A stretch of DNA of 64,000 bases, taken from NCBI RefSeq assembly GCF_003149375.1, contig NZ_QFWH01000001.1, forward strand, positions 212,753 to 276,752. Reading direction: 5' to 3'. Positions 2,205 through 14,075 of the stretch are shown here, piece by piece. The number at the start of each line of letters is the position of its first letter. Position 1 is the first letter of the stretch. Position numbers and translations under genes: made by a program. Below the pieces are notes generated by a model. That model saw only the letters and a program-made list of their open reading frames with translations. It had not been told where the DNA came from and did no database searches. This stretch comes from Vampirovibrio chlorellavorus. GTDB taxonomy: Bacteria > Cyanobacteriota > Vampirovibrionia > Vampirovibrionales > Vampirovibrionaceae.

Positions 2205-2341
2205 ATGCGATTGAGGCGTGTTAACTTTTACAAACTTTCATCCACCCTTCAGAAATTGGTCGCCATACCCTGGTTTTATTGGGATAATGTCTTATAGGGT
2301 TCTCATTGGCACAGGCCAGCAACAACAAGGCAAATCACACC

Positions 2342-3613
2342 ATGAAGCATCATAAGCCGTCGGCATCCTGGGCTTTTAGACAACAGCTGGCCATTGGGCT
2401 GGCAGTCACTGTTGCCGCAGGCACCCTTTCAGCAAGCCCTGTACAGGCCGCTGGCACCACTTCACGGGATTTTTTGCCCCCCATCGCAACCATTAACGCG
2501 CGTTTGGTGGAACAGGCCGTCACCAGCACTGATGACCCCCTGGAGCCGGTGGCATTATCCGCCGTGCAGACCCCGGTATTGCACGCCACCCCCAAGGTGG
2601 AAATGCTGGACACCGACCTGAGCGCCCAGATTAAAGCCACACAGGTGGAGAACCTGATAGAAATCCAGCGAAAAATCGACGAGGCCGATTTGGAATCCTT
2701 GTGGGAAGCCACCGTGGAAAAGAACCCGGTCATCCGGTTCTCTCTGGAAAAACTGGCCACCCCGGCTGATTTACAAAACAAGCAATCCAGCCGGTTTATG
2801 ACCAAAACCCTGAACATGCTCATATCCGGGGCCACCATGGTGCCAGCCATGCTGCCGGGAAGCGGCATGTACCAGAACATGGGCAGCATGGCCGTGGGTA
2901 ACGCCCTACAGAATCTGGTGAATGGTAAAACCCAGATCAACCCCAACAGCTTATCCGCCACGGAGCAAATTCAGCTGGCCGGACTGATCGATCAACTCAA
3001 GCTCCGGCTTATCCACAATTACCAGGATTACAAGAACACCTTGCAAAATCTGGCTCAAAGCCACGCCATTACCACCAAAAACAACCTGTTGTACTCCAAA
3101 GCGCTGGCCTCCAAGAATGATTTGGCCATTATGGCGGCAGGGTCCGCCTATTATCAGTCTCTGCTGAGTGAAACCGCCTTGCGGCAAAAGGCCAAGCTAA
3201 ACCGGCTACAACTGGAGCGACTGGCTGGCCCGGAAGCGGTCCAGCGACTGGAGTTGGCCGTACACGTGCCAGAGTCCGCAGCCACAGCCCTAAGCACCCC
3301 GACCATTGAACCGGCCAGCCTGAACATAAAAGAACTGAAGCGTGAGGAATTCATTGGCCCCTCTCCCATGGAAAGCGTGCTGCAAAGCAGCACAGCCAAA
3401 ACCGGCGAGCTTATTGGCCCCGAACTACCGCCAGCCAAAGTGCGCATGCCCAAGCAAAACACCCGTAAAAAACCACAAAACAACGAACCGCTCCAGCCCA
3501 TGGAAATTGGGCCACAACTCAATGAAAGTGACGCCCATCACACGCTGGAACTCCCCAAGGCCATTTCGCTGATTGAGGATCACGCCCAAACAGGAGAGAT
3601 TGGACTGCAATGA
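2342..3613 (+). CDS. Secreted helical protein, degenerate OEP/TolC-like, paralog 1
   Basis: A 423-residue protein with a clear signal peptide (hydrophobic ALAV/VAAGT region ending at SPVQAAG). A LESLWEATVEKNPVIRFSLEKL segment recalls the first helix of outer-membrane efflux proteins. A small-residue-rich stretch with Gly and Met follows, then long amphipathic helices around LIDQLKLRLIHNYQDYKNTLQNL. The C-terminal 110 residues are Pro/Lys-rich and look disordered. It shares the LWEA-VE-IR-EKL pattern and the helix order with the next gene, so the two are tandem paralogs. It lacks obvious beta-barrel strands of TolC. A TTG at 2306 could extend it, but the ATG at 2342 gives a standard signal peptide. 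Function unknown. Confidence 0.75.
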   Translation: MKHHKPSASWAFRQQLAIGLAVTVAAGTLSASPVQAAGTTSRDFLPPIATINARLVEQAVTSTDDPLEPVALSAVQTPVLHATPKVEMLDTDLSAQIKATQVENLIEIQRKIDEADLESLWEATVEKNPVIRFSLEKLATPADLQNKQSSRFMTKTLNMLISGATMVPAMLPGSGMYQNMGSMAVGNALQNLVNGKTQINPNSLSATEQIQLAGLIDQLKLRLIHNYQDYKNTLQNLAQSHAITTKNNLLYSKALASKNDLAIMAAGSAYYQSLLSETALRQKAKLNRLQLERLAGPEAVQRLELAVHVPESAATALSTPTIEPASLNIKELKREEFIGPSPMESVLQSSTAKTGELIGPELPPAKVRMPKQNTRKKPQNNEPLQPMEIGPQLNESDAHHTLELPKAISLIEDHAQTGEIGLQ

Positions 3614-4560
3614 ACGGGCACCCAGCCTCACAACCCAAACACTGGCTCATTCACAGCCTGCTCCTGTTGTGCCTGACACAGGGCAACATTGTACAAGCCG
3701 CCAAACCCGCACAGCCTGAAGCCAAGAAAACCACGGCCTCTCCCACCGGCAGCGCGGCGGCCAATAAACCCAAGCCCGCCTCCCATCGAAAAGAGCCCAA
3801 ACCGGTTATTGATGAGGAAACCCATAAAAGCATTACAGAAGCGGCACTGAAACTGGATCAGGAAGTCCGCAAGCAGATGAATCAAACGGCGGACTCGATT
3901 CAGCGAGAAGATCAGGGTATTTACAATGAAGTGCGGGATGATGAAGAGTTGGCCCTGACCGATATTGGCATGCTGTGGGAAGCCGCCGTGGAACGCAGCG
4001 GAACCATTCGCTACGCCATAGAAAAACTCTCTCGCCGAGATGCCACCGGTAAACCCGTGGAAGCCGATAACTTCTCCAAACGCATGATCGGCAGTCTGGT
4101 ACACCTGGGCGGCGTGGCAGGCAGCATGTGGACCGGCACTCCCGCCGGACTGATTGGCTCAGGTATGATTCAGGACATGATGGCCGGGAACCCTTCCGAC
4201 TCCGCACTGTCCAGAGTAACCGACGCCGACATGGTCATTTTGGCCAAAGAGGTCGAGGAATTACAAAGCCAGCTCATCACCCTATATTACAACTATAAAC
4301 ACGCCAAGGAGCGCTTGGCACTGGCCAAAGAGGCTGAGCAGATGATTGAAAAGCACGGCAATCAGGCCGAAAGCAGCAACAATACCACAGAGGCGCTCAA
4401 GCCACTCATGCAATCCCTTGTTGAATCGGCCAGACAGGAAGTGCAAACCGCGGAACAAAATTACAACAGCAGCCGGGTGGCCCTCAGCGGACTCGTCGGC
4501 CCTGCCGCCATTTCTGCCTTGGAGCAGACTTCAAAAAAGAGTGCAAGCACCAAACTGTAA
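3610..4560 (+). CDS. Secreted helical protein, degenerate OEP/TolC-like, paralog 2
   Basis: A 316-residue protein whose ATG overlaps the stop of the preceding gene by four bases (ATGA), so the pair is probably translationally coupled. The signal peptide is LIHSLLLLCLTQGNIVQAA. A Lys/Pro/Ala-rich linker follows, then an IGMLWEAAVERSGTIRYAIEKL segment nearly matching the upstream paralog. A Gly/Met-rich patch and two long helices come next. The last one, ESARQEVQTAEQNYNSSRVA, followed by LSGLVG, resembles the closing helix of an OEP repeat. It is short for TolC (about 450 residues) and seems to hold a single repeat. A periplasmic or envelope-associated coiled-coil role is plausible; function is not known. 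Confidence 0.75.
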   Translation: MNGHPASQPKHWLIHSLLLLCLTQGNIVQAAKPAQPEAKKTTASPTGSAAANKPKPASHRKEPKPVIDEETHKSITEAALKLDQEVRKQMNQTADSIQREDQGIYNEVRDDEELALTDIGMLWEAAVERSGTIRYAIEKLSRRDATGKPVEADNFSKRMIGSLVHLGGVAGSMWTGTPAGLIGSGMIQDMMAGNPSDSALSRVTDADMVILAKEVEELQSQLITLYYNYKHAKERLALAKEAEQMIEKHGNQAESSNNTTEALKPLMQSLVESARQEVQTAEQNYNSSRVALSGLVGPAAISALEQTSKKSASTKL

Positions 4561-5043: not shown

Positions 5044-5508
5044 TTACAAGCGACTTTTTCTTTGGTTGCGCAGGGCATTCAGAAACACCAGATTTCCAAT
5101 GGCCACATAGGTCAGGAACAGAATGGAAATGGTGTTGATCATCCAGGTATTGTGACCGTCGCTGATAAATCCAGCAGTCCAGGCGTGGCCGTTCTCAGCG
5201 GTCACCAAACCATAAATGGACAACAGCAGCATGTAAGCCCCCAGCAAGTGAGGAACCAGACACACAATGGCCACCGCCACCAGAAACTCAACAATCAACA
5301 ACAAGCCATAACCACCCCAAACCACATCCGATGCGCTGAAGTAGTTGTGCATCATGCCGGACAGGGTCAGTGGAATGGCGTTCATTAACAGAAAACAAGA
5401 AGCTGGCAAAATGATGGGCCAAAACTCCTTGAAAAACCACGAAAAACGACCGCCAGCGGTACTGACGTCAAAATGATGCTCTTCGGGATGCTCCGGGTGA
5501 TTAGACAT
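5044..5508 (-). CDS. Four-TM membrane protein at the end of the respiratory cluster
   Basis: A 154-residue integral membrane protein. It has a His/Glu-rich cytoplasmic-looking N-terminus (HPEHPEEHHF) and four hydrophobic segments at about residues 30-50, 60-82, 84-103 and 122-142. I do not recognise a family. AGGAGAGA precedes the ATG at 5508; an upstream in-frame TTG is less likely. It closes the run of tightly packed minus-strand genes, only 15 bases after the 36-residue peptide gene, so it may be an accessory or assembly subunit of the quinol-oxidising complex. That role is inferred only from position. Confidence 0.7.
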   Translation of the reverse strand: MSNHPEHPEEHHFDVSTAGGRFSWFFKEFWPIILPASCFLLMNAIPLTLSGMMHNYFSASDVVWGGYGLLLIVEFLVAVAIVCLVPHLLGAYMLLLSIYGLVTAENGHAWTAGFISDGHNTWMINTISILFLTYVAIGNLVFLNALRNQRKSRL

Positions 5509-5523
5509 GATCAATCTCTCCTA

Positions 5524-5652: not shown

Positions 5653-6081
5653 CTACTTGGCGGCCTTGGCGGTGGACTTTACTTCCGGGGCGGGTAAAGA
5701 CTTGCAGTCCTCCACAAACTGCCCCACCAGCTCGCTCAGCTTGTCATACTCAACTGCCGATAGCCAGTAGCCTTGCACCCGACGCTTATCCACGCTGGGC
5801 TTTAACTTGGGCATGCGTTTGCCAATCAGGCGATCCCGGCAAAACTTGTTACCTTCGCGGTAGTGGCAATCGCCCATACGACAACCCAGGGCAAAAGTAC
5901 CGTTGGCACCGTTCTTGAGGGCCGTTTCCAGCATAACCGGTTGAATCTGGCCGCTGCAAGGAACGCGGATGATTTTGACAGATGGATGATCCAGCATGTT
6001 GCCTTCATCGTCCAGGTGACCTTTAAAGTCCACGCTCCGCTCGCAGACCAGGCCAATCAATTTGGGATTCTCAGTAGTCAT
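5653..6081 (-). CDS. MvhD/FlpD-type iron-sulfur protein
   Basis: A 142-residue protein of the methyl-viologen-reducing hydrogenase delta-subunit family. Diagnostic motifs are IRVPCSGQIQP, then FALGCRMGDCHYREGN and FCRDRL. Cysteines are in PCSG, GCRMGDC and the FC position, with one more near the N-terminus (VCERS). In known systems these proteins carry a [2Fe-2S] cluster and pass electrons between a hydrogenase or flavoprotein and HdrA-like bifurcating subunits. Here no hydrogenase or HdrA is nearby. The gene directly follows the cytochrome b-ferredoxin fusion, 14 bases away. It therefore probably takes electrons from, or gives them to, that ferredoxin domain (inference). Confidence 0.85.
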   Translation of the reverse strand: MTTENPKLIGLVCERSVDFKGHLDDEGNMLDHPSVKIIRVPCSGQIQPVMLETALKNGANGTFALGCRMGDCHYREGNKFCRDRLIGKRMPKLKPSVDKRRVQGYWLSAVEYDKLSELVGQFVEDCKSLPAPEVKSTAKAAK

Positions 6082-6095
6082 CAGCGATTTCCTTA

Positions 6096-7244
6096 TTAAG
6101 AAACTGTCAGAGCGGCTTCAATCTCAGCCAGTACATTGTTGGTATCCCGGCGGGGAATTTCAATGGCCTTGAAGGCACAAGCGCCTACACACAGACCACA
6201 ATTCGCGCAGCGTCCCGGATCCACAACAGCCAACCGCTTGAAGCGGGTGCCATCATTGCCACGATCCACCATCTCGATGGCCTCATAGGGGCAATCATTG
6301 TAGCAGAGCGAGCAACCTGTACAGTTTTCACGGGTAACCACAGCAAATTGATCGCGCAGTGCTTTCTTTTGCAGGTAAGGCAGAATCAACAAGCCCACCG
6401 GCACCGCAATCACCAGCAACACAACCAGCAAGGGAGCCACGTTGTGAGCCGCAAGATATTGAGGCCAGGCGTACAGCAGGTCAAAGTAGACATTCGGACT
6501 GACCGCCGTGAGCAAGGGAGCGGCTGCGGGATCCGACATGTTGGTCAGAACACCCAGCTCCACCGGGAAAGCGGCGGAAAACAGGAACAACACACCGGAC
6601 AACATGACCACCAGCGCCAAAGGCGGTTCGGAAACCGGGCGGGTAATGCGCAGGTAATGCAGCCACAACATGAACATCATAAACAGCGGAATACCCAGGT
6701 GCAGGAACATCATGCGGGTCAGGGTATAGTCGGTAATCATCTTGCCAGCCATCAAGGCTTCAGCCAAAGCGGCTCCCACAAACGGGGTTTTACCCACCAG
6801 GTTGAAAGTCATGTTGGCCAAAGTCACAGCCTCCTGATCCCAGATCAGAAGATAGCCGCTCAAACCCACGATGAATGTGATAATCAGCAATACCACGCCG
6901 GTTACCCAGGGGACGATCCGGTATTCCCGGTAACGATCAGTGAACCATACCCGAAACATGTGCAAAATCACAAAAATCATCATGCCATCGCTGGCATAAC
7001 GGTGGATGGAGCGGAACAAGTTACCAAACGGCAACTCGTAGGTAATGTAGCGAACGGACGCATAGGCAGTCGCCAGCGTGGGCTGGTAGTAGGCAAACAA
7101 CAGCAAACCGGAAATAAACAGGGCCCAGATAAAAAAGTTGGGCAAAGCCCCGTGATAGTAAAAAGGATTGTACTTTTGAGAAAAAAGTTTGTTTAAACCT
7201 CTCTCAAGCCAAAGTGTGGCATTCTGTAATGGTTCGGTGTACAC
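6096..7244 (-). CDS. Cytochrome b (two-haem) fused to a 2x[4Fe-4S] ferredoxin domain
   Basis: A 382-residue fusion. Residues 1-200 form a cytochrome b6-like four-helix core with all four haem ligands: H81 and H95 in helix B, H182 and H196 in helix D, both pairs 14 apart. Residues 205-293 resemble a shortened subunit IV, with PNVY (250-253) where quinol-oxidising enzymes have PEWY. Residues 308-363 hold two CxxCxxCxxxC motifs (ENCTGCSLCYNDCPYEAIEM and CANCGLCVGACAFKAIEI). The GTG at 7244 is preferred because AAAAGGAG lies 8 bases before it; an earlier in-frame GTG at 7265 has no such site. It is probably a second haem subunit passing electrons between quinone and iron-sulfur clusters on the cytoplasmic side. 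Confidence 0.88.
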   Translation of the reverse strand: MYTEPLQNATLWLERGLNKLFSQKYNPFYYHGALPNFFIWALFISGLLLFAYYQPTLATAYASVRYITYELPFGNLFRSIHRYASDGMMIFVILHMFRVWFTDRYREYRIVPWVTGVVLLIITFIVGLSGYLLIWDQEAVTLANMTFNLVGKTPFVGAALAEALMAGKMITDYTLTRMMFLHLGIPLFMMFMLWLHYLRITRPVSEPPLALVVMLSGVLFLFSAAFPVELGVLTNMSDPAAAPLLTAVSPNVYFDLLYAWPQYLAAHNVAPLLVVLLVIAVPVGLLILPYLQKKALRDQFAVVTRENCTGCSLCYNDCPYEAIEMVDRGNDGTRFKRLAVVDPGRCANCGLCVGACAFKAIEIPRRDTNNVLAEIEAALTVS

Positions 7245-7267
7245 GGGCTTAACTCCTTTTAGCACGT

Positions 7268-7579
7268 CTATTGCTTGTTTTTAGGCTCATCCAACGCAGT
7301 AGAAATCTCTTCCTGCGCACCTAGCAAAATATAAGAAATACTAACGGCGAATAACACTACCCCGATAGCAAGGCTGTACTGCTGCAAACCGGGCTTGATC
7401 ACAGCTTCAAACTGCTTGGAAATAGCCAGCGGATTCAGGATCTCCTGAGGATGCCCGCCAACCAGGGTGACCAGCCAGACACTGCCTTCAGCGTTAAACA
7501 TGACCCATAACCCGAACAATGAGGCAACGGCAATCAGCAGAGCGAGAAAATCTCTCCAATTGTTTTTTGATGAATTCAT
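7268..7579 (-). CDS. Two-TM small membrane protein
   Basis: A 103-residue protein with hydrophobic segments at about residues 10-28 and 68-87, joined by a loop with a conserved-looking GGHPQEILNPLAISKQFE stretch. The C-terminus is charged. The ATG overlaps the stop of the upstream 109-residue gene by four bases. No family recognised. Its place between the two cytochrome b genes suggests a subunit of the complex. Confidence 0.7.
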   Translation of the reverse strand: MNSSKNNWRDFLALLIAVASLFGLWVMFNAEGSVWLVTLVGGHPQEILNPLAISKQFEAVIKPGLQQYSLAIGVVLFAVSISYILLGAQEEISTALDEPKNKQ

Positions 7580-7905
7580 TGATTCTTTCCTTTTTTCTCA
7601 GAAGTGATTCTCAGTAAGAAACCTTTCCGAATCATCCAATCAAATAACTTTACCGGTTTTTGCACGTTACCCTTGTGCTTTTCCTGAACGTAGCTGTCGT
7701 AAGCCAGAATGCCAATGGACTGAAACAGAAGCACCATCACCAGCAACCACAAGCCAGCGTTTGGCCAGGTGGGTTCCAGGGTAAAGATTCTAAAGGTCTG
7801 AAAGCCCAGCGATGCGATGAAGGTAGCCAAAAGAAAGAAGAACCACCAAGCCATCCTGTTCAAAGGCTTCTGACCTAAATCATACTCCTGCGACAACCGA
7901 GGCAT
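7576..7905 (-). CDS. Two-TM small membrane protein
   Basis: A 109-residue protein beginning MPRLSQEYDLGQKPLNRMAW, with hydrophobic segments at about residues 18-38 and 46-66 and a basic C-terminal half. An open frame continues upstream into the cytochrome b gene, but the ATG at 7905 lies one base after that gene's stop and gives a compact protein. It is translationally linked downstream by an ATGA overlap. No family recognised; likely an accessory subunit of the bc-type complex by position. Confidence 0.7.
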   Translation of the reverse strand: MPRLSQEYDLGQKPLNRMAWWFFFLLATFIASLGFQTFRIFTLEPTWPNAGLWLLVMVLLFQSIGILAYDSYVQEKHKGNVQKPVKLFDWMIRKGFLLRITSEKKGKNQ

Positions 7906-7906
7906 C

Positions 7907-9409
7907 TTAGGCACGGACTCCTTCGGGTTGCAAAGCGCCCAAGCGGGCTTCACGCTGAGCCCGGTCAATCCAGAACAGGAAACCGGCAACCAGCATTTGA
8001 ACCACGGCAAAGCCAAACCACAACAAGCTCCAGTACAGATTGGAGAAGTTGATGGTAACAGAAGCACCCTGGAACATCATGGCAAACCAGGCCTCCAGGC
8101 TATGGCCGCCAAAAGCGCCCGCCAACTTGGTGTTTTCCACTACCAAATGCCAGAAGATGAGATAAAAAGTACTGGTCACCAGGTTAAAGAGAACCCACAC
8201 CGTCATTGGCAAACGCTGCTTGTACATGGCCCAGTGCCAGAACTGGCCAATGGTGATCATGCCAATCAGGTGCGCGAACCAGTAAGGGGGATCCGTTTCA
8301 ATGTTGGCCATGTTGGCGATGATAAGCATGGAGAAAACCACAAACTCAATCGCCGCCATAATGCCAATGGTGGTGAACAAGGGACGCTTCAGCCAGTTTC
8401 TCTCGGGACCAAAATCCAGGAAGGTCAACCCAATGGTCACAAAGGGAATACCCAGAGTCCAGATGGTGGCCCAATAAGGGTCCATGTACTTCAGCAGCTG
8501 GTACAGGGCCAAAAAGTACCAGTCAGACAGAATAGGCAAGGGAGTCACCTCCGGGTTGGCCCGTGTGCCAGATTCCGCTGGGAAGATAATGGCAGTGAAC
8601 ACCAGCATGGCAATCACCAAAATAACCAGCGGCTTCTTCAGGTTAATGCGCTTCAAGCGGTTTTTATAGAAATAGATTTCTGAAACAACCAGCAAAATCA
8701 GGGATAAGGCGAAGTGCAGGGAGTAGAAGCGGGTCATGGTGGCCTGACCAATGGAACTACCGCCCATCAAAATCTGCGAGGTACTGAATCCCTGGTGCGT
8801 GATATTTCCCACCAACTGGGTGACCGCACCAATCATGTTGGGGATCAGCCAGGAGTTTTTATAGTTCGCAAAATCCCACGGCCAGGCCCAGTTCGCTGGC
8901 GTGATATCCAGGTAGGTTGGGAAGGTGGCAAAAACCTTGGTCGCCCAGAAGGCACGCTGGTTCCAGATGAGCAGGTAACCACTCAAACCGGAGTACATGG
9001 CAATTACCAACAACAAAATACCCAAAATAAAGGTCAGTTCACCCTTGTTTTTGTATTCGGCGGTAAACCACATACGATAGACCCGCAAAGTGGCCGCGAT
9101 GATCATGGCGTCTCCACTGTACTTGTGCATCCCCCGCAGGATGGAACCCAGGGCGTTGTGAGACAACAAATCCACCGAGTTATAGGCCTGAGCGGTGGTT
9201 GGCAAATACAAGGAAACCAGAATGACACCGGAAATGAGGACCAGCACCCAGCACAGATAATAGAGCCCACCCAGCTGATACCAGGGAGACTCCGACTGCA
9301 GATCCACCTTGGTTTCGTCGAACAAATCAATCTTCTGTACACGCTCCATGACCCAATTATAGGCCTGGGCAGGAAGCTGTCTGGGATCAAACGTATTCGT
9401 GGCTACCAT
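7907..9409 (-). CDS. Large cytochrome b/subunit IV fusion lacking haem bH ligands
   Basis: A 500-residue membrane protein with fused cytochrome b6-type and subunit IV-type parts and about four further C-terminal helices. Haem bL histidines H95 and H232 are present (RGMHKYSGD and RFYSLHFALS). The positions 14 residues further on, which bind haem bH, are R109 and Y246. The quinol-oxidation motif is SDWY (295-298), an acidic PEWY variant. So the protein appears to carry one b haem, at the side facing the Rieske protein. It abuts the Rieske gene, whose stop immediately precedes its ATG. Family membership is certain; loss of haem bH is read directly from the ligand positions and its consequence is inferred. 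Confidence 0.9.
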   Translation of the reverse strand: MVATNTFDPRQLPAQAYNWVMERVQKIDLFDETKVDLQSESPWYQLGGLYYLCWVLVLISGVILVSLYLPTTAQAYNSVDLLSHNALGSILRGMHKYSGDAMIIAATLRVYRMWFTAEYKNKGELTFILGILLLVIAMYSGLSGYLLIWNQRAFWATKVFATFPTYLDITPANWAWPWDFANYKNSWLIPNMIGAVTQLVGNITHQGFSTSQILMGGSSIGQATMTRFYSLHFALSLILLVVSEIYFYKNRLKRINLKKPLVILVIAMLVFTAIIFPAESGTRANPEVTPLPILSDWYFLALYQLLKYMDPYWATIWTLGIPFVTIGLTFLDFGPERNWLKRPLFTTIGIMAAIEFVVFSMLIIANMANIETDPPYWFAHLIGMITIGQFWHWAMYKQRLPMTVWVLFNLVTSTFYLIFWHLVVENTKLAGAFGGHSLEAWFAMMFQGASVTINFSNLYWSLLWFGFAVVQMLVAGFLFWIDRAQREARLGALQPEGVRA

Positions 9410-10060
9410 TTACGCAATACCTCCCGCTTCTAGTGCGGTAATAACAAGCTTGGAACCTTGCATGTCATACTGAAAATGACGCGGCGGACGGGGTGCAGGA
9501 CCGCTTACCACTTTTCCGGCCAGCAATTGACCGCTGACTTCCTGAGATTGCAGCGGATCATAAACGCTCAAGTGGCAGGGGCAAGCAAACATTGGATTCT
9601 TGGCGGATGGATAGTTGTATGCCGCTGCCTCGGCCGGATCCGGCAAGAAGTTGAACACGCAACCCATGTGGGGACAAATCCGACTGACCACAATAAAGTC
9701 AGGTTTACCGTCCTTGTCTTCCGGCAAGCGAACTACAAAGCCGGGGATTTTACTGGCCTGAAAGTGCTTAAAAGTATACTCTTTGCTCTGCTGGCTGAAA
9801 GTAAACGGCTGATAAGACCAGGGGGTAGGGAACATGGACAAATCAAACTCCACGCTTCTCTCAGCCTTAGGCATATCCGGTTGCTTGACCAAACCGGAAA
9901 TACCGTGCCAATCCGTCGGTTTGCCTTTAAAGTCCCAGGAGGTGGTTTTCAAAGGGCCTGAAGACGGGCGCAAATAGCGGAACAACGGAGAGACAAAAAG
10001 AGCCAGAGCGCCTAAAACGGGGATACTGACAATAATTTTTAAAAAATCTCGTCGGTTCAT
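9410..10060 (-). CDS. Rieske [2Fe-2S] protein of the bc-type complex
   Basis: A 216-residue protein. The N-terminus MNRRDFLK followed by a hydrophobic helix is a Tat-type signal anchor, as usual for Rieske subunits. Cluster ligands are C129/H131 and C160/H163 in CPHMGC and CPCHLSVYDP, with C134 and C162 placed for the stabilising disulfide. The AGGAGGGG Shine-Dalgarno lies about 10 bases before the ATG at 10060. A longer frame starting at 10141 runs inside the upstream cytochrome c gene and is rejected. It accepts an electron from quinol at the SDWY site of the adjacent cytochrome b and passes it to the cytochrome c. Confidence 0.95.
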   Translation of the reverse strand: MNRRDFLKIIVSIPVLGALALFVSPLFRYLRPSSGPLKTTSWDFKGKPTDWHGISGLVKQPDMPKAERSVEFDLSMFPTPWSYQPFTFSQQSKEYTFKHFQASKIPGFVVRLPEDKDGKPDFIVVSRICPHMGCVFNFLPDPAEAAAYNYPSAKNPMFACPCHLSVYDPLQSQEVSGQLLAGKVVSGPAPRPPRHFQYDMQGSKLVITALEAGGIA

Positions 10061-10061
10061 T

Positions 10062-11207
10062 TTAGATAGCCCCTCCTTGCTTCTCGTTCTTTGAGGCAGA
10101 TCCCTCCCGAACCACGGAATCAGCAGGCACGGGACCAACATGCGTCATCCCACCCGTGATGGGATCGGCAGGCATAATGTGATAACGGACCCCTTTGTTG
10201 GGCGCGTTATTCTGCATGGCTTCCGTCCAGGGGCGGTTGGTGGGCAACGGCGCACAAGACTGAATAACACCCAGGCCTGGGGGAGGATTTTTAGCCTCTG
10301 GCAGATCCGGGTTCAAATCGTTGTCGTAGGCCCAGGCACGCACATAACGAACCAGATTGGTCAACAGTTTTTCATCAAAGACAAAGGTGGGCTTACCCGT
10401 TTCTTTGTCCAGGTTTACATCCCCATACCAGGCGGGCATGGCGGAAGGATAAATCCCTTCACACAAGTACTTCAGCAATTGGGCGTCCGTTCGGTTGTAA
10501 ACACGACTGTATTGCTGGAAGTTGGCCGGAGCAGGCTGTAAGTTCTTGAGTTGAGGCGCATCGTGCAGCTCATGGTTACCCGTTTTGCCCGTATGCAAGA
10601 AGCCATCGCCCTGCCCTTTGGAACCGTGGCAAACAGCACAGTTTCCACCGAAAATGCCCGCCAGATCCTGCTTGGGGTCCGGAGACTTCATGTCTCCCGC
10701 ACCCGCCAGGTAACGAGCATAAAAAATAGCAGACCAGCGCTCATCGGCATTCAGGACATTTCTGAAAGCCGGATGTCCCTTGGGAAGCAATTTCTTGCGT
10801 TCCGGCGTGAGCAGCTCGGGCACCAGTTCACCATGCTGATTCACCAGTTGCTTGACTTCACCACGCGTCAGGAAGCGATACATATCAATCGGTGTGGTGT
10901 ACGCCAGATCCACTTTCACCTTTTGGGTTTGCCAGAAAGAAGTGGCGTGGCATTTAACGCAATGCTGCTGGAAAACCTCCCGGCCTTTCATTAAGGAAGG
11001 CGGCTTGGAAGGGAAGGCGAAGTCCTCGGCGCTCATCTGTTGATTGAACACAGGTTGAGCGGCAATGGTGGCTTTACCCAAACTCGCCTTGTCTGGAGCG
11101 TTACCGCATCCACTCAATAAAACAGTGGAGGTGATGGCTGCAACCAAGGCCAATGCCGATAGTGGCGGTCGCTTTTTGAAAGTCTGCATTTTAAACGAGA
11201 AGTCCAT
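10062..11207 (-). CDS. Dihaem cytochrome c lipoprotein
   Basis: A 381-residue protein with a lipoprotein signal (hydrophobic region ending LLSGC, lipidated Cys at 34). It has two c-type haem motifs, CVKCH at 83-87 and CAVCH at 190-194, each starting a cytochrome c domain. A long Pro-rich tail follows. Length and arrangement suit a membrane-tethered electron carrier replacing cytochrome c1. It lies between the cbb3-type oxidase genes and the Rieske/cytochrome b genes, so it probably connects the two complexes. An alternative ATG at 11189 would shorten the leader by six residues. Confidence 0.92.
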   Translation of the reverse strand: MDFSFKMQTFKKRPPLSALALVAAITSTVLLSGCGNAPDKASLGKATIAAQPVFNQQMSAEDFAFPSKPPSLMKGREVFQQHCVKCHATSFWQTQKVKVDLAYTTPIDMYRFLTRGEVKQLVNQHGELVPELLTPERKKLLPKGHPAFRNVLNADERWSAIFYARYLAGAGDMKSPDPKQDLAGIFGGNCAVCHGSKGQGDGFLHTGKTGNHELHDAPQLKNLQPAPANFQQYSRVYNRTDAQLLKYLCEGIYPSAMPAWYGDVNLDKETGKPTFVFDEKLLTNLVRYVRAWAYDNDLNPDLPEAKNPPPGLGVIQSCAPLPTNRPWTEAMQNNAPNKGVRYHIMPADPITGGMTHVGPVPADSVVREGSASKNEKQGGAI

Positions 11208-11592: not shown

Positions 11593-12633
11593 TTAATGTC
11601 TTCCGCCTCCAAGTTGCTCAGGATACTCGTCCTTGATTTCCGTCAGCCGAGAAATCTGCTCGTAGTTTTTCGACATGACATCCGGCTGATCCAACTGAGA
11701 ATAGTTTACAACTTCCACCTCGGAAGATGGGGTAGCGGCATTCACCGGCAAGGTTTTGATGAAAGCCACCAGATACGCCAGCTGCTGCTCGCTCAAACTA
11801 CGTCCCCAACGGGGCATCCGGGTTCCGGTTACCCCTTCTTTCAAGCGCCAGTAGTAAAGGGCATCGGTGTAACCCTTGTAGAAAGGCCGAGTCAGGTTGG
11901 CGGGCTTTTTAATCATAGAGGAACTGACTGGACCATTACCCCGACCGGTGACACCGTGACACTGGGCGCAGTTTTGCATGTAAATACCACGACCGGAGTT
12001 GGCGATGGCCGAGTTGTTGGTGTCGACGTTCTTGGAAATACGCTTCCACTCATCCCGCATTTCCTGAGGGGCTTCCAGCCAGGTCAAAGGACCCTGGGCC
12101 GGAGCGGCAGCATGGCCACCCGCCGCGGATTCATGGGTCGGCTTTTTACGACGACGGGCTGCCAATTCACGCTCTTTGCCCAGCGTCTGCAAATAAGCCA
12201 CCAGATCCTTCATTTCGCTGTCTTTCAGGTAGCTGAAAGAAGGCATCAGGGAACCGGGTTTCACGGAACGGGGTTGAACGTGGTGCGCCCAATGCCAGGC
12301 ATCCGGGTATTTCCCCCCGATGTTGGACAAATCCGGGCCAGTCCGCTCGGTACCCAACAGGTGAGGGGTCTCGTTCAGGTAGTCACCCGCCTGAACCATC
12401 TCACCCATTTCACGATCCTGGTAGCGGACAAACTGGGTATGGCAATACACGCAGCCTTCCCGCTTATAAATTTCCCGACCCCGCCATTCACTGGCCGTAT
12501 AGATGTGTGATGCGGCCGTGGCTTCCGGCTGGAAGGTGGTGGCTGGCAAAATGGCCGTGACAAAAATGATGGTCAGAAAGATCAGGGCCACAAAGACAGC
12601 GGCAATCAGGTAGTTAAGAATTCGAGGTTGCAT
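11593..12633 (-). CDS. ccoO: CcoO fused to a monohaem CcoP-like cytochrome c domain
   Basis: A 346-residue protein. Residues 8-30 form the membrane anchor. Residues 51-150 are a CcoO domain with CVYCH at 61-65, RTGPDLSNIGGKYPDAWHWAH and an axial-ligand candidate M130. After a basic, His/Ala-rich linker, residues 205-297 form a second cytochrome c domain with CAQCH at 222-226 and M273. Canonical cbb3 oxidases have separate CcoO (one haem) and CcoP (two haems) subunits; here a single chain seems to supply two haems. It delivers electrons from cytochrome c to CcoN. Confidence 0.9.
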   Translation of the reverse strand: MQPRILNYLIAAVFVALIFLTIIFVTAILPATTFQPEATAASHIYTASEWRGREIYKREGCVYCHTQFVRYQDREMGEMVQAGDYLNETPHLLGTERTGPDLSNIGGKYPDAWHWAHHVQPRSVKPGSLMPSFSYLKDSEMKDLVAYLQTLGKERELAARRRKKPTHESAAGGHAAAPAQGPLTWLEAPQEMRDEWKRISKNVDTNNSAIANSGRGIYMQNCAQCHGVTGRGNGPVSSSMIKKPANLTRPFYKGYTDALYYWRLKEGVTGTRMPRWGRSLSEQQLAYLVAFIKTLPVNAATPSSEVEVVNYSQLDQPDVMSKNYEQISRLTEIKDEYPEQLGGGRH

Positions 12634-12668: not shown

Positions 12669-14075
12669 CTATACGTAAGCGATTCCGGTCGGAGACTCCG
12701 GCAGCGGCTCAGCCGATTTGGAGAAGACCGTTTTGTAAATATTAAGCATGTACAGCACCTGACCGGCAATCAACAGGAAGCCGGACACTGTCCGCACGAT
12801 GAAGTAAGGCACCATTTCCATCACCCACTGATCGTAGGGCAGGGTAAAGTGCCAGCCAGCAGCCTGAATCAGACCGGCAATGGTCAGAGACAGCATCATC
12901 ACAATCCAGCCGATAAAGCTGAGCCAGAAGTGCCAGATGGCCAAAGAACGACTGTAGATTTTGCGGCCCGTGATTTTGGGAATAATGAAGTAGGAAGCCG
13001 CAAACACAATGAAAGAGAAGGTGGCCAGCAGGGCCAGGTGAGCGTGACCCACTACCCAGTTGGAAAAGTGCAGGTACCAGTTAATAGACCGGGTGGCCTG
13101 AAAAGGCCCCTGCATACAGGTTAGCAAATAAGCCAAACCGGCAGCCATGGCAAACCGCATGGGAATGTGATCCGCCATCAGGTGCCACTTGCCTTTCAGG
13201 GTCATAAAGAAGTTGACCTGCACGGTTAACACCGGAATCAACAAGAAGACACTGGAAATAACGGCAATGGCCTTCAACCACTCCGGAACGGGAGATTGTA
13301 GAATGTGGTGCGTCCCGGTGGGCGCATAGAACATCCCGATAGTCCAGAAGCCGATCATGGACAAGGTGTGACTGTAGAGCGGGTTGCCGGAAAAACGGGG
13401 CAACAGGTAATAAAGAATACCCACACCACCCACGGTAAACCACATCCCCAGAATGTTGTGCCCATAAAACCAACCGGCAATGGCATCATTCAGACCCGTA
13501 AACTGCACAAAAGCCCGGTTACCAATCACGTACACGATGGGGAACCAGAAGAGCGCACCCATGAAGTACCACAGGCTGACATACCACTTCTTCTCGGTGC
13601 CGGTGAAAATGGTCATATAAACGTTCAAACCAACCAGCAACAGGGCACCCAGCACCAACCAGTCAAACGGCCCGTTCAGCTCGGCATATTCCCTGCCTTC
13701 GGTGTAACCATTCAGGATGCTGTAGACCCCAACGAACACCGTCAAATTCCAGAGAAAGAGGGTAATGTTTCCCAGACGTTCAGACCATAAACTCTTGCGA
13801 CCCGCCAAAACCGGCACGATGTAATACATGCAAGAAACATATCCCATGGACAACCAGCCAATCAGCACCGTGTTAATGTGCGCTGGACGCAAACGCCCGA
13901 AAGCCAGTTGAGGAATCCCGTGGATCAAATCCGGACTATACATCAACAGTGATGCAATCAGGCCGAATAACATGCCAAACACCAGGTAGAATATGGCACA
14001 AATCAAGAAGTTTCGGCTGGCACTAAAGGGCTCGTCACTAAATACGGCGCGCCATAGGTTGGTAAGGGCTTGCAT
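12669..14075 (-). CDS. ccoN: cbb3-type cytochrome c oxidase subunit I
   Basis: A 468-residue, roughly 12-helix catalytic subunit that reduces O2 to water and pumps protons. Visible ligands are H66 and H346 for low-spin haem b, H344 for high-spin haem b3, and H206, H256 and H257 for CuB. Y250 matches the Tyr cross-linked to a CuB His in cbb3 enzymes. Motifs RPAHINTVLIGW, GHNILGMWFT, PTGTHHIL and VVGHAHLALL are typical. It opens the long minus-strand respiratory cluster. GGAG lies about 13 bases before the ATG. Confidence 0.95.
   Translation of the reverse strand: MQALTNLWRAVFSDEPFSASRNFLICAIFYLVFGMLFGLIASLLMYSPDLIHGIPQLAFGRLRPAHINTVLIGWLSMGYVSCMYYIVPVLAGRKSLWSERLGNITLFLWNLTVFVGVYSILNGYTEGREYAELNGPFDWLVLGALLLVGLNVYMTIFTGTEKKWYVSLWYFMGALFWFPIVYVIGNRAFVQFTGLNDAIAGWFYGHNILGMWFTVGGVGILYYLLPRFSGNPLYSHTLSMIGFWTIGMFYAPTGTHHILQSPVPEWLKAIAVISSVFLLIPVLTVQVNFFMTLKGKWHLMADHIPMRFAMAAGLAYLLTCMQGPFQATRSINWYLHFSNWVVGHAHLALLATFSFIVFAASYFIIPKITGRKIYSRSLAIWHFWLSFIGWIVMMLSLTIAGLIQAAGWHFTLPYDQWVMEMVPYFIVRTVSGFLLIAGQVLYMLNIYKTVFSKSAEPLPESPTGIAYV

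What the first reader, a model, noticed from the sequence alone, without database searches (positions are those of the whole stretch)
6096..9409. Two cytochrome b subunits with complementary loss of key sites
The 500-residue cytochrome b has haem bL histidines H95 and H232 but R109 and Y246 at the haem bH positions, and an acidic SDWY motif. The second cytochrome b (382 residues) has all four histidines (H81/H95/H182/H196) but PNVY instead of PEWY. In bc1 and b6f complexes one protein carries both b haems and the PEWY site. Here quinol oxidation and the path through haem bH may be divided between two proteins, with the second ending in iron-sulfur clusters. This could be a variant complex III that does not run a normal Q-cycle.
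Basis: partly seen in the sequence, partly recalled or inferred. Interest (0 to 1): 0.88.

Follow-up and report, generated by a model that had tools for sequence, protein, structure and literature searches.

The report
Complex III split between two cytochromes b
In this non-photosynthetic relative of cyanobacteria (Vampirovibrio), and in more than 100 genomes of three bacterial phyla, the core of respiratory complex III is divided between two different cytochrome b proteins, one keeping the quinol-oxidising site and the other the second haem plus an iron-sulfur exit to the cytoplasm, so the textbook Q-cycle cannot run inside either protein alone.

Summary
CytbA (500 aa, 7907-9409) keeps both haem-bL histidines, has R109/Y246 at the haem-bH positions, and has an SDWY Qo motif. 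CytbB (6096-7265) keeps all four histidines and ends in two [4Fe-4S] motifs. In 120 aligned CytbA sequences the bL histidines are invariant and position 109 is always R or K. All 105 loci with enough flank have CytbB plus an FlpD/MvhD [2Fe-2S] protein downstream. The order cytochrome c, Rieske, CytbA, CytbB, FlpD occurs in Vampirovibrionia, Sysuimicrobiota (CytbA in 38 of 43 genomes) and a few Armatimonadota. Qo elements are hyperconserved in CytbA and relaxed in CytbB. One correction: PNVY is not at the PEWY column of CytbB; FDLL is (family consensus xDWF). Best reading: an obligate CytbA/CytbB heterodimer with one Qo site, where the low-potential electron crosses bL(A) to bL(B) to bH(B) and can leave through Fe-S clusters to FlpD. 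It resembles a natural version of the laboratory 'cross-inactivated' cytochrome b dimer. Haem content, dimer composition and electron direction are untested. I found no description of it in the papers I could search.

The parts
7907..9409 (-). CytbA, 500 aa cytochrome b: Qo protomer. bL ligands H95 (9125-9127) and H232 (8714-8716); R109 (9083-9085) and Y246 (8672-8674) at the bH positions; SDWY (8516-8527)
6096..7265 (-). CytbB, 389 aa ORF (probably 382 aa, from a start 7 codons later at 7244): cytochrome b with both haem sites (H88, H102, H189, H203), six predicted TM helices, C-terminal 2x[4Fe-4S] domain (C315-C363)
5653..6081 (-). FlpD/MvhD-type iron-sulfur protein (PF02662), the only one in the genome; four invariant Cys (13, 42, 67, 72)
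9410..10141 (-). Rieske [2Fe-2S] protein (ORF; likely start at the M of MNRRDF, about 10060, by inspection); all cluster ligands conserved
10062..11207 (-). di-haem c-type cytochrome (two CXXCH; probable lipoprotein, LSGC), candidate electron acceptor from the Rieske protein
7576..7905 (-). small membrane protein sm1 (109 aa from MPRLSQ), between the two cytochromes b
7268..7579 (-). small membrane protein sm2 (103 aa, two TM segments)
11593..12633 (-). CcoO (cbb3 oxidase subunit II) fused to an extra C-terminal cytochrome c domain
12669..14075 (-). CcoN (cbb3 oxidase subunit I); the operon joins complexes III and IV
5044..5514 (-). 156 aa membrane protein, recognised only in the window's genus and one other genus of its family; membership in the complex uncertain

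Best explanation
A Rieske/cytochrome b complex whose membrane core is an obligate heterodimer. CytbA holds the single working Qo site and haem bL. Quinol (menaquinol is indicated by futalosine-pathway genes) is oxidised there; one electron goes to the Rieske protein, the di-haem cytochrome c and the cbb3 oxidase. The other cannot go up within CytbA, which has no haem bH. It passes from bL of CytbA to bL of CytbB, then to bH of CytbB on the cytoplasmic side. From there it most likely leaves through the two [4Fe-4S] clusters at the CytbB C-terminus and the [2Fe-2S] protein FlpD to a cytoplasmic acceptor, or partly to quinone at the N side. Shown by sequence: residue losses, conservation, constant gene pairing, co-inheritance, fold family and predicted topology. 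Inferred: haem content, heterodimer, bL-bL path, exit to FlpD and direction of flow.
For: Complementary loss is invariant: CytbA 120/120 without a bis-His bH site, CytbB with all four His (116-118 of 118, the rest truncated) and 8 Cys; a further 23 loci agree. 105/105 loci with sufficient flank have CytbB and FlpD downstream on the same strand. CytbA and CytbB are each one clade (100/98, 100/99) and their distance matrices agree (r 0.89, 0 of 2000 permutations as high). Mean column entropy, cd1 helix: A 0.39, B 1.59; ef/PEWY segment: A 0.55, B 2.05; averages over the core 1.26 and 1.58, so the Qo site is under strong constraint in A and relaxed in B. The CytbB C-terminal clusters and FlpD match adjacent parts of HdrA2 (571-642 and 645-772), a known electron relay. 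Six predicted TM helices and 12 K/R in the C-terminal part put the clusters on the cytoplasmic, bH side. Engineered dimers with a dead Qo in one half and no bH in the other turn over through bL-bL transfer (PMC4330944). The Rieske protein keeps Ser (118/118) and Tyr/Phe next to the cluster and menaquinone genes are present: a possibly high-potential Rieske with a low-potential quinone, the setting argued to give a very low bL in anammox complexes (PMC12954380).
Against: No joint structure could be modelled, so the heterodimer is unproven. CytbB keeps an acidic residue and often W at the PEWY column (xDWF), so its Qo site may not be dead. No flavoprotein or NAD(P)-binding subunit is conserved beside FlpD, and the genome shows a single CCG-domain protein and so no evident HdrABC set, so the acceptor is unknown. 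MvhD-type proteins usually pass electrons from a dehydrogenase, so flow could be inward. The mirror-tree signal would also arise from simple co-inheritance of an operon.
Confidence: 0.58

Rival explanations
1. Same heterodimer, but a Q-cycle still closes: the electron crosses bL(A) to bL(B) to bH(B) and reduces quinone at an N-side site of CytbB; the Fe-S/FlpD arm is an inlet or side branch.
For: CytbB keeps both haems; bL-bL plus Qi turnover works in engineered dimers (PMC4330944). CytbB has conserved N-side residues such as the HY(L/V)R(I/M)xRP stretch.
Against: Neither CytbA nor CytbB has the FxPxFxxKD-type segment at the start of helix E that canonical homologues in these phyla conserve. 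The Fe-S domain and FlpD are invariant.
Confidence: 0.2
2. Two separate machines in one operon: CytbA-Rieske-cytochrome c oxidises quinol without bifurcation, and CytbB-FlpD is a cytoplasmic donor:quinone reductase feeding the same pool.
For: MvhD proteins commonly relay electrons from dehydrogenases (general knowledge); the genome shows no NuoF, so another entry into the quinone pool could be useful.
Against: CytbA and CytbB are never apart at loci with enough flank (105/105) and their distances correlate. The CytbA Qo site is hyperconserved, yet its bL would have no electron outlet.
Confidence: 0.15
3. CytbA does bind a second N-side haem or other cofactor through non-histidine ligands (Lys/Arg and Tyr), so the loss is only apparent.
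For: Position 109 is always basic and 246 mostly Tyr; one Armatimonadota member has Lys and His.
Against: 246 can be F, L, M or W; Arg is not a usual haem ligand (general knowledge); no other conserved His is near.
Confidence: 0.05
4. Sequencing error, pseudogene or misassembly at the two positions.
For: None found.
Against: All aligned genomes agree, including an isolate genome of V. chlorellavorus (L114) and contigs over 1 Mb.
Confidence: 0.01

Closest known systems
Cytochrome bc1 / b6f (Rieske/cytochrome b) complexes
   Same: Homologous cytochrome b fold and bL site, Rieske protein, acidic Qo motif, c-type cytochrome, linked terminal oxidase.
   Different: Two non-identical cytochromes b; one lacks the bH ligands; the other carries an Fe-S domain and is followed by FlpD; no Cys at the haem c_n column of b6 in the window proteins.
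Engineered cross-inactivated cytochrome b fusions of Rhodobacter (PMC4330944)
   Same: One half with a working Qo and no bH, the other with bH and no Qo; only bL-bL connects them.
   Different: Man-made point mutants; here two old natural paralogues with an added Fe-S exit.
Anammox Rieske/cytochrome b complexes of Kuenenia proposed to reduce NAD(P) (PMC12954380)
   Same: Proposed use of the low-potential Qo electron outside the Q-cycle through Fe-S clusters on the cytoplasmic side.
   Different: Kuenenia was modelled as a cytochrome b homodimer with both haems and an FAD/NAD(P) subunit; here the cytochromes b are split and the chain ends in FlpD without a flavoprotein in the operon.
HdrA2 C-terminal ferredoxin plus MvhD/FlpD relay of methanogens
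   Same: CytbB Fe-S domain and FlpD match adjacent parts of HdrA2; FlpD aligns with solved MvhD chains.
   Different: No HdrA flavin domain; the relay is attached to a membrane cytochrome b.
'petB/petC next to C-type oxidase' of Melainabacteria (PMC6349859)
   Same: Probably the same locus in related genomes; annotated there as part of cytochrome b6f.
   Different: No mention of the missing bH ligands, of the second cytochrome b as a distinct type, or of FlpD in the passages read.

Membership tests
Canonical bc1/b6f complex | Rieske [2Fe-2S] protein with CxH/CxxH boxes | tested here: met
   All six ligands 118/118
Canonical bc1/b6f complex | One cytochrome b carrying both bis-His b haems and the Qo motif | tested here: not met
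   CytbA lacks bH ligands 120/120; CytbB Qo elements relaxed, motif xDWF/FDLL
Canonical bc1/b6f complex | Qo motif of PEWY type | tested here: met
   SDWY, an acidic variant, in CytbA 40/40 within the class; the wider scan was biased to SDW
Canonical bc1/b6f complex | N-side (Qi) quinone site | tested here: inconclusive
   Canonical FxPxFxxKD-type segment absent in both proteins; an alternative site is not excluded
Canonical bc1/b6f complex | Homodimer | not testable with these tools
   No multimer prediction available
Cytochrome b6f | Covalent haem c_n through Cys35 of b6 | tested here: not met
   Q (CytbA) and Y (CytbB) at that column in the window proteins
Anammox NAD(P)-reducing Rieske/cytb complex | FAD/NAD(P) oxidoreductase subunit in the complex | tested here: not met
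   No such conserved gene in the operon
Alternative complex III | ActB-type molybdopterin-fold subunit | tested here: not met
   None among the operon proteins scanned
FlpD/MvhD | PF02662 match with conserved Cys | tested here: met
   80.7 bits against cut-off 22.3; Cys 113-114 of 114
HdrABC-MvhD bifurcating system | HdrA/HdrB/HdrC present | tested here: not met
   FlpD unique; a single CCG-domain protein, not in the operon. HdrA itself was not searched for

The most novel reading that the evidence does not exclude
A natural obligate cytochrome b heterodimer that uses bL-bL transfer as its only path and bifurcates menaquinol electrons between oxygen (through the cbb3 oxidase) and a cytoplasmic low-potential carrier through FlpD: a complex III that makes reductant instead of running a Q-cycle.
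Probability: 0.35. Interest if true: 0.95.

Novelty: new variant of a known kind. Interest (0 to 1): 0.82.

Why it matters
Whether electrons physiologically cross between the two bL haems of a bc complex has been argued from engineered mutants (PMC4330944). A natural enzyme in which that step appears obligatory would make it directly testable. If the low-potential electron leaves to the cytoplasm, it would be a second, independent case for quinone bifurcation used to make reductant, after the proposal for anammox bacteria. It appears to be the only complex III of the window's Vampirovibrio genome and CytbA is present in nearly all sampled Sysuimicrobiota, so energy budgets that assume a Q-cycle for these lineages may need revision.

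Tried and rejected
Sequencing error or pseudogene: rejected. Another histidine taking over the bH role: the only other frequent His columns are 33, 205 and 371, none invariant and none in the helix B or D segments that hold the ligands. PNVY as the lost PEWY of CytbB: wrong column. Alternative complex III: no subunits. A flavoprotein partner for FlpD in the operon: no common downstream gene found. AlphaFold2 models with 13-row alignments gave only moderate confidence (pLDDT 62 and 68), so I used them for fold assignment only, not for distances. Literature searches for a heterodimeric cytochrome b or a Rieske complex with FlpD found nothing describing this; subscription papers, such as the 2017 Science paper on respiration in these lineages that I know of only from memory, could not be read.

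Full report
What was checked. The window lies in a 2.8 Mb Vampirovibrionia genome, in one genus with loci of 94-98% identical CytbA titled Vampirovibrio. On the minus strand it holds a gene run: CcoN, CcoO fused to a cytochrome c, a di-haem cytochrome c, a Rieske protein, CytbA (500 aa), two small membrane proteins, CytbB with a 2x[4Fe-4S] tail, and FlpD. phmmer alignments to solved cytochrome b6 put H95 and H232 of CytbA on the bL ligands and R109 and Y246 (or F247, because b6 has one extra residue in helix D) at the bH ligands. CytbB has all four.

It is not an accident. A class-wide genome search with the protein itself, not with a motif, found CytbA in families across Vampirovibrionia. In 40 aligned members H95 and H232 are 40/40, 109 is R or K, Y246 is 40/40 and SDWY is 40/40. 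A scan of one genome per species in GTDB added loci outside the class (its patterns WNQRAFW and PLPILSDW bias that set towards SDW, but not towards any residue at the bH positions). In the joint set of 120 rows, some of them the same species reached twice, no CytbA has a histidine at position 109 or 246. A set of 23 further loci, partly overlapping the earlier ones, agrees, with one exception on one side: an Armatimonadota member with K and H, still not bis-His. 38 of 43 genomes of the phylum that holds Candidatus Segetimicrobium (Sysuimicrobiota) carry CytbA, but only 3 of 251 sampled from Armatimonadota. As a control, 45 other cytochromes b of these phyla (cyanobacterial b6 and canonical PEWY or PDWY proteins) all keep both histidine pairs (one doubtful ORF, L223, left out).

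The pair is inseparable. All 105 CytbA loci with at least 3.5 kb downstream have both CytbB and FlpD there on the same strand. CytbB keeps its four histidines and eight cysteines, and FlpD its four cysteines, nearly without exception. In a tree of the b6-like domain CytbA and CytbB are each one clade, apart from canonical cytochrome b and b6, and the same split between Sysuimicrobiota and the others appears in both (the program warns that long branches meet between A and B, so their mutual order is not claimed). Distances correlate at r 0.89, no permutation of 2000 as high, which operon co-inheritance alone would also give.

Division of labour. Two segments form the Qo site: the cd1 helix and the ef loop with PEWY. 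In CytbA they are the most conserved parts examined (mean entropy 0.39 and 0.55 against 1.26 overall); in CytbB they are average or worse (1.59 and 2.05 against 1.58). CytbB has six TM helices (hydropathy together with the model) followed by a lysine- and arginine-rich tail, which puts its clusters on the cytoplasmic side next to bH. Its Fe-S tail and FlpD match neighbouring parts of HdrA2 and FlpD aligns with solved MvhD.

Mechanism. The simplest working arrangement is a CytbA/CytbB heterodimer: quinol oxidation at the CytbA Qo site, one electron to Rieske, the other by bL(A), bL(B), bH(B). The bL-bL step is known to be fast enough from engineered dimers in which one half lacks Qo and the other lacks bH (PMC4330944). 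The electron then either reduces quinone at the N side or leaves through the clusters to FlpD. I favour exit because the Fe-S path is invariant, the canonical helix-E KD segment near the N side is missing from both proteins, and the same use of the Qo electron has been proposed for anammox complexes with high-potential Rieske proteins (PMC12954380). Here the Rieske protein keeps the Ser and Tyr/Phe next to the cluster, which I know from other systems to raise its potential, and futalosine-pathway menaquinone genes are present. Against this, no cytoplasmic partner was found: FlpD is unique, NuoF is absent, a single CCG-domain protein exists elsewhere, and no gene next to FlpD is conserved.

Is it known? 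Papers on these organisms annotate a full respiratory chain, or petB and petC of b6f next to a C-type oxidase (PMC6349859; PMC4451040; PMC4040986), and the Sysuimicrobiota paper does not use the terms cytochrome b, Rieske or complex III (PMC11604079). Searches for a two-cytochrome-b or FlpD-containing Rieske complex found none. Only openly licensed papers could be searched, so priority is not established.

Limits. AlphaFold2 models were of moderate confidence and no multimer could be run. Haem content, assembly and direction of flow are inferences. Most genomes are metagenome-assembled, and some record titles (Bacillota, Armatimonadetes, Chloroflexi, Actinobacteria) disagree with where the genomes or sequences fall.

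Noticed in passing
L196 / L224 (genome G518, Armatimonadota): The most divergent CytbA has Lys and His at the two bH positions and ERIYSDWY at the Qo loop: possibly an intermediate form.
   Followed up: partly
L096-L099, L101-L103, L105-L108: Other members of the class carry a separate canonical cytochrome b with four His and PEWY, alone or beside the split complex; the window's genome seems to have only the split one.
   Followed up: partly
window CytbB residues 33-40 (7146-7169): NPFYYHGA: YYHGA is invariant in the 41 Vampirovibrionia CytbB aligned and lies at the column of the haem c_n Cys of b6, with His beside it; Sysuimicrobiota have Thr instead. An N-side cofactor or cluster contact is possible.
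   Followed up: no
L076-L089 and other Obscuribacterales loci: CytbA carries a C-terminal extension of roughly 100-200 residues, absent in the f3 family.
   Followed up: no
window 11593-12633: CcoO of the cbb3 oxidase is fused to an additional C-terminal cytochrome c domain.
   Followed up: no
G000 whole genome: No NuoF (PF01512) match, so complex I probably lacks its NADH module.
   Followed up: partly
window 2306-4560: Two adjacent secreted-looking proteins (435 and 316 aa) share a segment (LWEAAVE...IRxxxEKL) and look like paralogues; not identified.
   Followed up: no
L139, L148, L185, L188, L193: Record titles name Actinobacteria, Proteobacteria, Chloroflexi or Bacillota, but sequence or genome grouping places them in Vampirovibrionia or with Sysuimicrobiota: probably mislabelled metagenome bins.
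   Followed up: partly
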